Part shown: piece after piece, positions 3,697-37,447 of the stretch
Position numbering within the stretch: the first letter of the stretch is position 1
Layout of the letters: each line of letters begins with the position of its first letter
IMG/VR virus record: IMGVR_UViG_3300030106_004155
Span: 1 to 39,782 of that record
Strand: one strand, 5' to 3'
DNA from: a virus
Length of the DNA: 39,782 nucleotides
Made by a program: the position numbers and the translations under genes
Notes under the pieces: model-generated
What the model was told of the DNA's origin: nothing
Databases searched by the model: none
Seen by the model: the letters and a program-made list of their open reading frames with translations, nothing else

Positions 3697-3730
3697 AAAG
3701 AGGCTGGATCATTTCTAGCCTCTTTTTTTT
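3697..3730 (+). terminator. Rho-independent terminator
   Basis: AAAGAGGCT (3697-3705) pairs perfectly with AGCCTCTTT (717-725 of this kilobase, i.e. 3717-3725) around an 11-nt loop, and is followed by a run of T to 3730. It lies 14 bases after the Api92-like gene and ends the first plus-strand operon. Confidence 0.85.
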
Positions 3731-3908: not shown

Positions 3909-4196
3909 ATGAAACCTATTAATATCGAAGCAATCTACAAAGAATATCTAGAAAAAACCAATGAGACTGATCTAAAAGAGATTAGAGCTAAGATGCCTGA
4001 AGGTAATGTTTATGGAGCATCTAGTGCAGGAATGTGTTCCAGGAAAATATACTACAAGGCAATAGAGAAAGCTACCAAGACAGAAGAGATTGATAGCAAG
4101 ACCTTGAGGGTCTTTAGAATAGGTACGTTGATACACAAAGACTTACAAGATTCCCTACAACAATTCAAAAGAAAAGAACCAAAAGAAAATATATAA
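3909..4196 (+). CDS. Cas4/RecB-type nuclease, N-terminal half (split gene)
   Basis: A 95-aa protein starting at ATG 3909 after GGAAGGG. YGASSAGMCSRKIYY supplies Cys43, the expected first ligand of a Cas4-type iron-sulphur cluster. LRVFRIGTLIHKDLQ supplies His76 of the first nuclease motif. The frame then leaves family similarity and stops at 4194-4196 in an AT tract. The catalytic Asp and DxK motifs and the other three Cys are on a separate ORF at 4491-4970, in the same frame. Either a two-subunit nuclease or a disrupted gene. Confidence 0.65.
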   Translation: MKPINIEAIYKEYLEKTNETDLKEIRAKMPEGNVYGASSAGMCSRKIYYKAIEKATKTEEIDSKTLRVFRIGTLIHKDLQDSLQQFKRKEPKENI

Positions 4197-4251
4197 TATA
4201 TATACTATATATATATATATATAATACAAAACCTACTTTAAGTAGGTTTTG
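4189..4251. repeat. AT microsatellite followed by perfect palindrome
   Basis: Alternating TA tract at about 4189-4224, then a 25-base palindrome at 4227-4251: CAAAACCTACTT, a central T, AAGTAGGTTTTG. As RNA it forms an 11-12-bp hairpin ending in TTTTG, so it could be a weak terminator; as DNA it could be an operator or cruciform. It lies inside the insertion that splits the nuclease gene, just before the ribosome-binding site of the inserted ORF. Confidence 0.7.
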
Positions 4252-4264
4252 AAAGGAATAATAA

Positions 4265-4507
4265 ATGATAATATTTGAAATAGTTTTAAAAGGTTACATT
4301 GCAATTGCACTTTCTACAGGATTAGATGAGCTTTGGAATATCAATAATCCTAGGCCATTTCCAAAGGTAGAGTATAACCTAGTAAAATGGGAAGAGAAAG
4401 ATTTTATAAAAATGAAAGATGGTAGTTATTTGCTTAGGCCTAAGAGAAAGATTGATTCTAAGTTAAAGGCTTTTGCTAGGAGTAGGTATTATGATAGAAA
4501 ATATTAA
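4265..4507 (+). CDS. Unknown small protein inserted within the Cas4-like gene
   Basis: An 80-aa protein with AAAGGAATAATAA upstream of its ATG. It has a short hydrophobic start (MIIFEIVLKGYIAIALSTG) and a basic second half (LLRPKRKIDSKLKAFARSRYY), with WNINNPRPFPKVEY between. No family was recognised and no endonuclease motif was seen. It is in a different frame from both nuclease halves and overlaps the C-terminal half by 17 bases, which suggests translational coupling. Confidence 0.55.
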   Translation: MIIFEIVLKGYIAIALSTGLDELWNINNPRPFPKVEYNLVKWEEKDFIKMKDGSYLLRPKRKIDSKLKAFARSRYYDRKY

Positions 4508-4970
4508 AGAGGTTTTGATAGAGCAAGAGATGCACCTAGATGACTTAAACGTAAGAGGCTTTGCAGACCTAGTAATATTGACAAATGATGAAAAAGTATA
4601 TTTGTATGATTTTAAAACTATAAATGATTGGTCTTACAAGATGAAGTTCTCTAAGAAATATAAAGATAAGGCAGAGGGTTCTATACATCAAGAGTTGCAA
4701 TTAGCTACCTATGGTATTTGGCTAGAAAGGGTGTATGGTAAAGTTGATGGTATGTATATTTTGTACTACAATAAAAATACATCTATAATGAAACAATTAG
4801 AAGTACCTAATGAAAGAATTTCAGATGCTATATCATTCTGGAAACAAACAATAGATATTCACAAAGATGGACTACCTAATATTGAAAAAGGTATATCGCC
4901 TGTAATGGATTGGGAGTGTAGATATTGTGAGTATCTAACTAAATGTAAAGAAGATAATAAGGAGAAATAA
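4491..4970 (+). CDS. Cas4/RecB-type nuclease, C-terminal half (split gene)
   Basis: A 159-aa protein with the PD-(D/E)XK core: VRGFADLVI (Asp26), VYLYDFKTI (Asp40-x-Lys42) and HQELQLATYG (a QxxxY-like motif). CRYCEYLTKC gives Cys143, Cys146 and Cys152 of an iron-sulphur cluster. The fourth ligand, Cys43, is on the upstream half. ATG 4491 has AGGAG eight bases upstream, so this half can be made on its own. Such nucleases normally work with the adjacent annealing protein as an exonuclease that makes 3' tails. Confidence 0.7.
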   Translation: MIENIKEVLIEQEMHLDDLNVRGFADLVILTNDEKVYLYDFKTINDWSYKMKFSKKYKDKAEGSIHQELQLATYGIWLERVYGKVDGMYILYYNKNTSIMKQLEVPNERISDAISFWKQTIDIHKDGLPNIEKGISPVMDWECRYCEYLTKCKEDNKEK

Positions 4971-5651
4971 ATGAGTAATAATAATCAAACTCTAGCAAAT
5001 CCTCCAGGACTAGAGAATGCAAGTGTAACACCAAAGCAAATGGTAGATAGCAAGTTGGCTATCAATAGAGAGCTGTTAGCTGCCATTAGAGCTGAAAAGC
5101 AGAGGATATCTTCATATACTACTCCAAAGCCTTACGTTAAAAGTAGGCCAGATGGTTTAGAATATGTAGAGGAAAAGTACATGAGAGACCAACTCAATGA
5201 GCATTTTCCTATTTGGAGTTGGGAAATAAAGAACGTAGAGTTCTTAGGATCAGAATGGTGTGTAGTAACAGGAGAGTTAAGTATTGTTGATTCTAGTATA
5301 CCTAGAAAGTTTGGTAGTGTAGGTTCTGCTAGAATACAATTCAAGAAAAACTTAGACCACATACCAGAAAACATTATAGACATTGACAAGAATGTTGCTA
5401 GTGCTAATACTAATGCTTTTAAAAGAGCTGTAAATAGACTATGCAATATATGTGATGATGTTTATAGAAAACAGATTGAGGACTATGCACTAAGCGATGA
5501 GCAAGTTAGTGCTATAAAGGAAGAGATGGATGGTATTGAGTCTACTGTAGCAGATAAAATACTAAGTGGCATAGAAGACCAATCTATTAGTACAATCAAT
5601 TACGATGCTACGTTAAGAAAAATAAAACAACTAAAGAAAAAGGAGAAATAA
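4971..5651 (+). CDS. Rad52/Sak-like single-strand annealing protein
   Basis: A 226-aa protein. After a disordered Asn/Pro-rich start, residues about 55-170 have YVEEKYMRDQLNEHFP, WSWEIKNVEF, VVTGELSI, GSVGSARIQF and ASANTNAFKRAVNRL. This order follows the Rad52/Sak annealing fold (promoter helix, WSWEI, V.G.L, G.G, then A..NA.KRA). The tail is Lys-rich. It sits between the nuclease and an SSB-like protein, the standard phage recombination trio. The start abuts the previous stop, with AAGGAG upstream. RecT-type is less likely. Confidence 0.6.
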   Translation: MSNNNQTLANPPGLENASVTPKQMVDSKLAINRELLAAIRAEKQRISSYTTPKPYVKSRPDGLEYVEEKYMRDQLNEHFPIWSWEIKNVEFLGSEWCVVTGELSIVDSSIPRKFGSVGSARIQFKKNLDHIPENIIDIDKNVASANTNAFKRAVNRLCNICDDVYRKQIEDYALSDEQVSAIKEEMDGIESTVADKILSGIEDQSISTINYDATLRKIKQLKKKEK

Positions 5652-31910: not shown

Positions 31911-31927
31911 TTTTTCTCCTTATAAAT

Positions 31928-31950
31928 AAAGGGGGGAATCTCCCCCCTTT
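31928..31950 (-). terminator. Strong hairpin terminator after the capsid gene
   Basis: AAAGGGGGG pairs perfectly with CCCCCCTTT around a 5-nt loop (AATCT on the plus strand), nine base pairs with a G/C core. It lies 18 bases after the capsid stop. On the minus strand the stem ends CCCCCCTTT followed by ATTTATAAGG, so the T-run is short. It probably causes partial termination and raises the capsid-to-downstream ratio, and may also protect the 3' end. Confidence 0.75.
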
Positions 31951-31968
31951 AATTTAGCTATCCTACTA

Positions 31969-32988
31969 TTAACTAGCAGGGTTAATCAATTTAGCACTAT
32001 ACTCTTCATTGATTGCTCCACAACCAAACAATGAGTCTGCTACTACCTTAGTAGATAGATAATCAATGTCGTATTGTGAAGTAACTCTTGGAGCTATTGA
32101 AGATGCAAATCCAAATGATTGAGGATGTAGCAAGTAAGCACAATGCTGGTTAGCACCTGTACCAATGCTATTACTCATAACAACTGGAACACCCCATAGT
32201 GTAGGGACTAGACCTGTGATAGCATTCTGAGCACCTGCAACAACATCAGCGTGAGCTACATATGCACCAGCAGCAGATTTAGGATTCATTAAAGCACCAA
32301 AAATCTTATAGTTAACTGCTAAAACACATCCATCAGCGATAGGGTCAACATTCTTTGCTCTTACTTTATCATACAATGATGCAAAATCGTCTAGTGAAAT
32401 TGCTTCATCAATATTACCAGCACTTGCAGTTGGAGTTACTGTATTTGTTGTAACACCTGCTGAAAGAACAGACTCAATGTATAAGTCAATCTTATTAGCA
32501 AGATCGTATGCAATACCCATTGTATACTTTTCCATCATGCCAGGAAGAGCTTGAACTTTAAGAACATCTGAAACCATTTTAGCAGCATACCAATGCTGAT
32601 CAATTGTGATTGTTGCCTCTAGTTCGTTAGTTGGGTCAAACTTAATAGCAGTATTACCACTAGCACCATCATCAACACTAGCACTACCAAGGTCTGCCTG
32701 CTCTGCTCCACCACCAGCTACTAACTTAGGAACGTGAATCACATCGCCTCTACCTGATACTAGCTCAGAATAGTCTTGTAGCATTGGCTTGAAAACTAAC
32801 TTCTTTTGAAGGTAGTCAAAAATCATATCAGACCACAGTTCAGGAACTAGGTTCTCACCTTGCTCATTAGCAGTCACAGTGTTTGTTTGAATTGCGAATG
32901 CAGTACCTGGAGATAGGTAAGCCTGCTTGTCATTACCCATAGGCCCAGACTGTACCCATCCCTCTATATTATTTAATAAATAATTCAT
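31969..32988 (-). CDS. Major capsid protein
   Basis: A 339-aa protein directly after the scaffold gene. It contains NLVPELWSDMIFDYLQKKLV, GDVIHVPKLVAGG, TITIDQHWYAAKMVSDVL, YTMGIAYDLANKIDLYIES, and TGLVPTLWGVPVVMSNSIG, then the C-terminal Ala/Ser-rich end. This is the layout of HK97-fold capsid proteins of the kind that lack a fused scaffold domain (N4-gp56/P22-coat-like assignments are possible). The preceding TAAGGAGAAAATAA is a strong ribosome-binding site, as expected for the most abundant virion protein. Confidence 0.85.
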   Translation of the reverse strand: MNYLLNNIEGWVQSGPMGNDKQAYLSPGTAFAIQTNTVTANEQGENLVPELWSDMIFDYLQKKLVFKPMLQDYSELVSGRGDVIHVPKLVAGGGAEQADLGSASVDDGASGNTAIKFDPTNELEATITIDQHWYAAKMVSDVLKVQALPGMMEKYTMGIAYDLANKIDLYIESVLSAGVTTNTVTPTASAGNIDEAISLDDFASLYDKVRAKNVDPIADGCVLAVNYKIFGALMNPKSAAGAYVAHADVVAGAQNAITGLVPTLWGVPVVMSNSIGTGANQHCAYLLHPQSFGFASSIAPRVTSQYDIDYLSTKVVADSLFGCGAINEEYSAKLINPAS

Positions 32989-36066: not shown

Positions 36067-37364
36067 TATCTGCTCCCTAATGTAAGTTTTGCCTGAGGTA
36101 TTGGGAATCTATTTATGAAAAAATACCTAACCATATCCATTCCATGGTCATGTAAGCCATCTTTTATAGGCGATTCTTTCAATAAACTTCCCTCTTTGTG
36201 TTCTGGATATCTATAATTCTCAAAATCTGCAATAATTCCTGTACATTTCTTATCAACATGTAGGAATCTATCTCCATTTGCATTCTTTATGTATCTTCTA
36301 ATGTGAGATATGCCAGATTCGATTTTAGTACTAACTTTGTCTCTTCTAGACCTAATTACTATGCCTAATCTACGAAATATTTCTGTATCTCCCAAGCCTG
36401 ATTGTCCAGAAACTTGTTTTCCTGCTGGGTCACCAAAATATTGAGCCACATTATATGGCTTTGACTTGACCATTTGTGCTAACTCATCTGTTTTTATGTT
36501 TGTCTTGTGTATTATCTCGTCTATAATTCTTATGTGGTCTTCGCCATTGACCTTATGAACTTGAAACCATCCCACAGCAGGCATCCTATAACCAAAATCA
36601 ATAGAGCAATATGTAGGAAGACCTGGATCGTAAGGATAGCTACCCACGTCAAGATTCCTATCAAATTCGTAAACCCTTCCTGCAAAGCTCGTGAATAAAG
36701 CTGCATATTCTTGGTCGAAAATTTCTTGTGGCATATTTCTCTTAGCCTCAACAAGGTCTGGGTCAGATTCTCCTGTAGGATATGCATATTGGTTTTCCCA
36801 CGATGGACTATTGAACGAATTCCAATCTTCATCTTCTTTTCCTCTCAGGTATAATTCATACACCCAATTGTAGCCTTCAGGCGTAGTTATAAAAATTGCA
36901 CTACCTTTACGATCAGATAGCGTTGGTCTAAGGTACATCTCCCAAGTTTTCTTCTTTTGCTTGGCTGCTTCGTCTAAAACAAGTAAATCTAGACCTTCTC
37001 CAACTAAACTTGGTGGATTATCAGCAGATTTGCCCTCAAATATGCTTCCCCACTCAAATTCTATGTACATATCACGATATGATGCTCTTCTAGTAGGCAT
37101 TTGCTTTTCTGTAATGCAAGTATGCCAAACTTCTCTAAAAACCTTCTCTGCTGTCTGATAAGTTGGTGCAACTACCCATGCTCTCTTGTTTGGTTGAGTA
37201 ATTACACACTCAATCTCTTTACTAGCTGAAACAGACTTACCCCAACGTCTTCCACACACTGCAACAGTGAATCTAGCTTGTTTTTCAGGGTAATGTAACC
37301 TCTCTTGACCAGAATGAGGCACATAATCTGTAAATTTAAACCATTTTTTTTTAAAATCTTCCAT
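36066..37364 (-). CDS. terL: Terminase large subunit
   Basis: This 432-aa protein has Walker A TVAVCGRRWGKSVSA (33-47), Walker B LDLLVLDEAAK (125-135), motif III AIFITTPEGYNWV, and a C-terminal nuclease starting YCSIDFGYRMPAVGWF (Asp256). It packages DNA into the prohead as the ATP-driven motor and cuts concatemers. The ATG at 37364 lies in an AT tract with no Shine-Dalgarno site, unlike most genes here. Confidence 0.95.
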   Translation of the reverse strand: MEDFKKKWFKFTDYVPHSGQERLHYPEKQARFTVAVCGRRWGKSVSASKEIECVITQPNKRAWVVAPTYQTAEKVFREVWHTCITEKQMPTRRASYRDMYIEFEWGSIFEGKSADNPPSLVGEGLDLLVLDEAAKQKKKTWEMYLRPTLSDRKGSAIFITTPEGYNWVYELYLRGKEDEDWNSFNSPSWENQYAYPTGESDPDLVEAKRNMPQEIFDQEYAALFTSFAGRVYEFDRNLDVGSYPYDPGLPTYCSIDFGYRMPAVGWFQVHKVNGEDHIRIIDEIIHKTNIKTDELAQMVKSKPYNVAQYFGDPAGKQVSGQSGLGDTEIFRRLGIVIRSRRDKVSTKIESGISHIRRYIKNANGDRFLHVDKKCTGIIADFENYRYPEHKEGSLLKESPIKDGLHDHGMDMVRYFFINRFPIPQAKLTLGSR

Positions 37365-37447
37365 ATATATTATATATATATATATATATTATATATTATA
37401 TATATATTTAACTCTAATATCCTTTTTAAGGATATTAGTAAGTTAAA
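37363..37447. repeat. AT microsatellite and long palindromic hairpin
   Basis: Alternating AT sequence at about 37363-37407 leads into CTAATATCCTT (414-424 of this kilobase, 37414-37424), loop TTT, AAGGATATTAG (37428-37438). It is extended by TTTAACT (37407-37413)/AGTTAAA (37441-37447) across a 2-base bulge, 18 base pairs in all. It lies between the small and large terminase genes, immediately upstream of the large-subunit ATG. It may attenuate or process the mRNA, or act as a DNA site. Confidence 0.7.

What the first reader, a model, noticed from the sequence alone, without database searches (positions are those of the whole stretch)
3909..4970. Cas4-like nuclease split in two by an insert carrying its own ORF
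The N-terminal half (Cys43, His76) and the C-terminal half (Asp26, Asp40-x-Lys42, Cys143/146/152) together make one Cas4/RecB nuclease. They are separated by about 290 bp with a TA tract, a perfect 25-base palindrome and an unknown 80-aa ORF. Both halves share one frame, the C-terminal half has its own AGGAG and ATG, and no catalytic residue is lost. The Fe-S ligands would have to come from two chains. This could be a working split enzyme, a recent mobile insertion, or an intron-like element.
Basis: partly seen in the sequence, partly recalled or inferred. Interest (0 to 1): 0.7.

Follow-up and report, generated by a model that had tools for sequence, protein, structure and literature searches.

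The report
Two-piece phage recombination nuclease gene
A DNA-cutting enzyme that most related viruses make as one protein is encoded here, and in at least six related bacterial viruses, as two separate genes, always broken at the same flexible joint, where the DNA itself carries a conserved A+T-rich signal that reappears beside the DNA-packaging gene of the same viruses.

Summary
Window 3909-4196 and 4491-4970 encode complementary halves of one Cas4-like (pfam12705/phrog_1706) PD-(D/E)XK nuclease; the next gene encodes a Rad52-fold annealing protein. The split is neither a recent accident nor an intron. Six other complete viral loci carry the gene in two pieces, broken at the same linker (between the helix holding the conserved His and the first beta strand). 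Their inserts are 1-4 small genes that differ, and spacing is not always a multiple of three. Catalytic and Cys residues are kept, C-halves mostly have their own ribosome-binding sites, and both halves evolve under purifying selection. Best reading: a two-chain nuclease. Unsplit relatives encode it inside the linker, where A/T-third synonymous change is zero (0/102 and 0/50 comparisons, against 104/425 and 200/728 elsewhere in the gene). A matching element recurs at the terS-terL junction of the same genomes; in the window these are by far the two strongest TA tracts. What the element does is unknown. Split phage enzymes are known (Aeh1 NrdA, gp43A/B); a recurrent split at a twice-used hidden cis element is the unusual part.

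The parts
3697..3725 (+). intrinsic-terminator-like hairpin with T run; the N-half is the first gene after it
   Evidence: pattern scan, sequence
3909..4196 (+). N-half of the Cas4-like nuclease (95 aa; Cys43, His76)
   Evidence: phrog_1706 positions 29-102, E 1e-8; homologous N-halves and whole proteins; dN/dS 0.17 against L016
4189..4226 (.). TA tract, first part of the AT-rich cis element; the N-half stop lies in it
   Evidence: near-identical tail in L034
4227..4251 (.). perfect palindrome / hairpin CAAAACCTACTTTAAGTAGGTTTTG, second part of the element
   Evidence: fold z about -6 with the TA tract; L034 has a hairpin of different sequence at the same place
4265..4507 (+). 80-aa orphan ORF, a small-gene cassette between the halves
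   Evidence: no match in Pfam, PHROGs, NCBIfam or viral contigs; length beyond chance; function unknown
4491..4970 (+). C-half of the nuclease (159 aa; D26, D40-x-K42, Q70-Y74, Cys143/146/152), own AGGAG and ATG
   Evidence: PF12705 37.1 bits, cut-off 22; phrog_1706 positions 112-248; dN/dS 0.05 against L001
4971..5651 (+). Rad52-fold single-strand annealing protein (likely partner)
   Evidence: predicted fold: human RAD52 Z 9.9, Mgm101 8.9, Sak 7.9; model pLDDT 72.9
37363..37438 (.). second copy of the element: TA tract (37363-37411) plus hairpin (37414-37438) between terL and terS
   Evidence: same place in relatives; terL and terS by PHROGs

Best explanation
The locus encodes a Cas4-like (RecB-family, pfam12705) exonuclease made as two polypeptides that assemble into one enzyme. 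The N-half supplies the helical layer, the motif-I His and one Fe-S ligand Cys; the C-half supplies the catalytic sheet (D, DxK, QxxxY) and the three remaining Cys. The enzyme probably makes single strands for the Rad52-fold annealing protein encoded next door, in phage recombination or replication. The split arose at a flexible linker whose DNA carries an A+T-rich cis element. In the window lineage a shift in the TA tract probably created the N-half stop (shown: the stop lies in the tract; inferred: the cause). The C-half then used its own start, and small accessory genes gathered on the 3' side of the element. The element has a second copy between terS and terL and is probably a functional phage DNA site (regulatory, replication or recombination); its role is not shown.
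For: Complementary profile matches. N plus C (254 aa) equals a whole relative (256 aa), split in the loop between helix 64-87 and strand 101-112 of a confident model. Six other complete split loci at the same linker, order always N-half, element, 1-4 small ORFs, C-half. All motif residues invariant in the eight C-halves; Cys and the other N-half motif residues kept. dN/dS 0.17 (N) and 0.05 (C) against the nearest relatives. Shine-Dalgarno-like sites before most C-half starts. Linker A/T-third synonymous change 0/102 and 0/50 in two unsplit clades. Second copies at terS-terL, more alike within than between genomes (p about 0.001).
Against: No experiment: assembly and activity are inferred. L016 covers only 54 codons and most dS values are saturated. 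L033's C-half has no clear ribosome-binding site. The synonymous test pools related pairs in a low-complexity stretch, and a third small set shows 3/24. The cause of the stop and the role of the element are not demonstrated.
Confidence: 0.72

Rival explanations
1. Decayed nuclease: the gene was broken by the insertion, one or both halves are non-functional remnants, and another nuclease does the job.
For: Broken genes are common in phages; the halves have not been shown to assemble.
Against: Both halves kept with all motifs in seven loci of two lineages, dN/dS well below 1 in both, C-half starts mostly with ribosome-binding sites.
Confidence: 0.1
2. RNA-level or translational joining: the insert is an intron-like element or is bypassed by ribosomes (as in T4 gene 60), giving one protein.
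For: The window insert is 312 nt, a multiple of three, flanked by a 9-base direct repeat AGAAAATAT; strong hairpins at the break. Five of seven split loci are in frame.
Against: Two of seven are out of frame; inserts range from about 0.3 to 1.2 kb with unrelated genes; no Rfam intron match; C-halves have their own starts; the direct repeat is reached in 196 of 5000 shuffles.
Confidence: 0.04
3. Ancestral split with later re-fusion: the split is old and the TA-linker unsplit clade (L036, L039, L042, L044, L017) re-joined the gene through the TA tract.
For: In the best tree the split L034 is sister to that unsplit clade and the window plus L033 branch next to them; at least two changes are forced. 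TA tracts occur in both forms.
Against: A single clade for the window, L033 and L034 is not rejected (p 0.28), and one clade for all seven is at p 0.098; more distant relatives are all unsplit.
Confidence: 0.25
4. The linker element is not functional: it is an AT-rich slippage-prone stretch, kept uniform by mutation bias or gene conversion, and the second copy at terS-terL is another such stretch.
For: Low complexity, TA microsatellite character, and the exact sequence differs between clades.
Against: ATA/ATT-type changes, which are neutral to A+T content, are frequent elsewhere in the same genes and absent in the linker; in the window only two such tracts stand out, at the same two places across the family.
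Confidence: 0.3

Closest known systems
Cas4-like pfam12705 phage nucleases / phrog_1706 (Hudaiberdiev et al. 2017, PMC5704561)
   Same: fold, PD-(D/E)XK motifs, His, one N-terminal and three C-terminal Cys; encoded by phages
   Different: two genes instead of one; no split form is mentioned in that survey (term search of the main text)
Cas4 SSO0001 (4ic1) and Pcal_0546 (4r5q)
   Same: model of the whole relative L036 aligns at Z 15.6 and 10.8; same Cys arrangement (PMC4176176)
   Different: single chain in CRISPR organisms; scores of our proteins lie under the curated Cas4 cut-offs
Split functional phage enzymes: NrdA of Aeh1, gp43A/gp43B of phages 25 and 44RR, T4 topoisomerase gp60/gp39 (PMC2988022)
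   Same: a phage DNA-metabolism enzyme made as two polypeptides with an insertion between the genes; an untranslated sequence alone can split the gene (44RR)
   Different: there associated mainly with free-standing homing endonucleases; here none in the window insert, the split recurs in two lineages, and the break is a conserved element with a second copy elsewhere
ori-lambda inside gene O (PMC6022878)
   Same: a cis-acting DNA site inside the coding sequence of a phage replication gene
   Different: here the host gene is a nuclease and a second copy lies at terS-terL; origin activity untested

Membership tests
Cas4-like RecB-family nuclease (PF12705 / phrog_1706) | profile match above the curated cut-off | tested here: met
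   C-half 37.1 bits and whole relative 47.7 bits against 22; both halves match phrog_1706
Cas4-like RecB-family nuclease (PF12705 / phrog_1706) | motif His, GxxD, DxK and QxxxY, one N-terminal plus three C-terminal Cys | tested here: met
   invariant or nearly so in alignments of split and whole members
Cas4-like RecB-family nuclease (PF12705 / phrog_1706) | Cas4 fold | tested here: met
   model of whole relative L036, Z 15.6 to SSO0001, rmsd 3.2 over 191 residues; the split pair itself was not modelled
Canonical CRISPR Cas4 (PF01930, TIGR00372) | profile score above the curated cut-off | tested here: not met
   whole relative L036: 15.3 bits against 22.7 and 39.6 against 65; no PF01930 match in the window
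Gene split by a homing endonuclease | endonuclease gene between the halves | tested here: not met
   window 80-aa ORF has no family match; only L048 carries a PF24579 PDDEXK_14 gene
Group I or II intron | match to an intron RNA family in the insert | tested here: not met
   no Rfam match at gathering score and none of this kind at E up to 10
Programmed ribosomal bypass (T4 gene 60 type) | gap that keeps landing possible across relatives, one protein made | tested here: inconclusive
   lengths and frames vary and C-halves have their own starts, which argues against; the protein product was not observable
Functional two-chain split enzyme | both halves retained under purifying selection with own translation starts | tested here: met
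   one exception without a clear ribosome-binding site (L033)
Functional two-chain split enzyme | halves assemble and are active | not testable with these tools
   needs co-expression
Phage replication origin inside a gene | replication starts at the element | not testable with these tools
   only AT-richness, palindromes and synonymous conservation are shown

The most novel reading that the evidence does not exclude
A family of uncultivated phages carries a paired cis-acting AT-rich element, one copy in or beside the linker of its recombination nuclease gene and one at the terS-terL junction, that evolves in concert within each genome. The nuclease has repeatedly become, and stayed, a two-chain enzyme with a shared Fe-S cluster because the element and its gene cassettes occupy the linker.
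Probability: 0.4. Interest if true: 0.75.

Novelty: new variant of a known kind. Interest (0 to 1): 0.62.

Why it matters
It would be a naturally split Cas4/RecB-type nuclease, testable for whether an Fe-S cluster and active site can be assembled from two chains. It also points to an unrecognised cis element used twice in a phage family and hidden inside a coding sequence. That element could be an origin, a recombination site or a regulatory site, and could explain why one joint is broken again and again.

Tried and rejected
Relatives of the 80-aa protein: none. Named phages: no match to the C-half or to a whole relative, only a non-significant N-half hit (E 0.3) in a Clostridioides phage. Genome contigs: none. 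Rfam introns and other RNAs: none. Intron and bypass readings rejected on frame and insert variability. The direct repeat AGAAAATAT as a target-site duplication was set aside as weak (196 of 5000 shuffles reach it). L001's contig start (a LamG piece joined to the C-half) was treated as a probable chimera; no other copy of that piece lies in the contig. Refusion versus repeated splitting stays open. The synonymous analysis pools related pairs, so its counts are not independent. One batch fold (L042:2935-3040) used wrong coordinates and is not used. A structured stretch in the L034 insert was followed and found only there.

Full report
What is there. The window is an IMG/VR virus record of 39,782 bases. 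At 3909-4196 an ORF of 95 aa ends with a stop inside a TA tract. A perfect 12+1+12 palindrome follows at 4227-4251, then an 80-aa ORF (4265-4507), and a 159-aa ORF (4491-4970) that starts inside it. The two outer ORFs match adjacent parts of one phage profile, phrog_1706: positions 29-102 and 112-248. The second matches PF12705 at 37.1 bits against a cut-off of 22.

Whole relatives. tblastn-confirmed loci in viral contigs give many unsplit homologues with short or moderate linkers between the halves. N plus C of the window (254 aa) equals a whole relative (256 aa), so nothing is missing. A model of the whole relative L036 (31-row alignment, pLDDT 87.9, pTM 0.86) is a Cas4 fold (SSO0001 Z 15.6, rmsd 3.2 over 191 residues). 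The split point, about residues 88-100, lies between the long helix 64-87 and the first strand 101-112. Known Cas4 proteins take one Fe-S cysteine from the N-terminal part and three from the C-terminus (PMC4176176), so here the ligands would come from two chains.

Split relatives. Six further complete loci (L033, L034, L035, L040, L048, L101) have the gene in two pieces at the same linker. L023 (N-half with stop) and L041 (C-half behind small ORFs) are partial cases. The order is always N-half, AT-rich element, one to four small ORFs, C-half. In the L035/L040/L041/L048/L101 lineage the small ORFs include related proteins, so they are old. In the window, L033 and L034 they are unrelated to each other. 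L034 ends in the same peptide, KRKEPKENI, and its DNA tail into the TA tract is 82-90% identical in 40-column windows, while upstream coding windows are about 45-70%.

Selection and starts. dN/dS is 0.17 for the window N-half against L016 (54 codons) and 0.05 for the C-half against L001. Other computable pairs lie between about 0.07 and 0.3, although many are saturated at synonymous sites. C-half starts mostly carry Shine-Dalgarno-like sequence (AGGAG in the window), but L033 lacks a clear one; short matches of 3-4 nt are common at internal control starts, so this is supportive, not decisive.

Phylogeny. On a tree without the linker columns the seven split rows fall in two lineages and need three changes; at least two are forced by starred branches. 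One clade for the window, L033 and L034 is not rejected (p 0.28), and one for all seven is at p 0.098. The number of splits, and whether the L036/L042 clade is a re-fusion, stay open.

A hidden element at the break. In unsplit relatives of two clades the linker codons hardly change at synonymous sites. For codons whose third base is A or T in both sequences, differences are 0 of 102 in the linker against 104 of 425 elsewhere (L036/L039/L042/L044/L017), and 0 of 50 against 200 of 728 (L038/L043/L046/L047/L049/L051). A third small set shows 3 of 24 against 41 of 135. Linker DNA is 77-88% A+T against 61-67% in the rest of the gene. Window 4181-4270 has the strongest predicted folding of its neighbourhood on both strands (z -6.1 and -5.3), and several relatives show similar minima. 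The pairs compared are related, so the counts are descriptive, but the contrast within the same genes is large.

Second copy. The window has two outstanding TA tracts: 4189 and 37363-37411, the latter between terS and terL and again beside a hairpin. G003, G005, G006, G008 and G010 likewise have their main TA tracts at the nuclease and at terS-terL. G002, G007, G009 and G019 have pyrimidine- or purine-rich plus AT-rich tracts at terS-terL, and G016 has a pyrimidine tract followed by an extra gene. Within a genome the two copies share more 8-mers than copies of different genomes do (0.287 against 0.191, permutation p 0.001). The order and strand of the parts are not fixed, which speaks for a DNA-level site, but this is inference.

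Neighbour. The next gene (4971-5651) is predicted to have the Rad52/Mgm101/Sak fold (RAD52 Z 9.9, rmsd 2.3, 87 aligned; model pLDDT 72.9), so an exonuclease-plus-annealing-protein pair is likely. No named phage relative of the nuclease was found.

Mechanism. Shown: two maintained ORFs, kept motifs, a common split point, conserved linker DNA, a second copy of the element. Inferred: two-chain assembly, exonuclease function for recombination, origin of the stop by a shift in the TA tract, and a cis role of the element. Split functional phage enzymes are established (Aeh1 NrdA, gp43A/B; PMC2988022), so the two-chain reading is not exotic. The recurrent split at a twice-used element was not met in the papers searched, which cover open-licence papers only.

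Noticed in passing
window 37363-37438; L109-L118: TA or pyrimidine tract plus AT-rich stretch between terS and terL in all genomes of the family examined, resembling the element at the nuclease break of the same genome.
   Followed up: yes
L034:3876-3987: Non-coding stretch in the L034 insert closed by a 12-bp stem (AAATAGAGAG.../...CTCTCTATTT) with internal structure, -35 kcal/mol; no Rfam match, and its core was found only in that contig.
   Followed up: partly
L048:3336-3842: One of the four genes inserted between the nuclease halves in L048 matches PF24579 PDDEXK_14, a putative phage endonuclease.
   Followed up: partly
L115:503-964; L117:522-728: Extra small genes also lie at the terS-terL junction: a 153-aa gene between pyrimidine tract and terL (L115), and a 68-aa gene between terS and the tract (L117, related one in L118).
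   Followed up: partly
L001:1-205; L016 end: Contigs of the window's two closest relatives break inside this nuclease gene; L001 starts with a LamG-like piece joined to the C-half, probably a chimera. The repeated TA tract may break assemblies.
   Followed up: partly
window 31924-31954: Strong hairpin AAATAAAGGGGGGA/TCCCCCCTTTAATT just downstream of the 339-aa minus-strand gene 31969-32988, a likely terminator.
   Followed up: no
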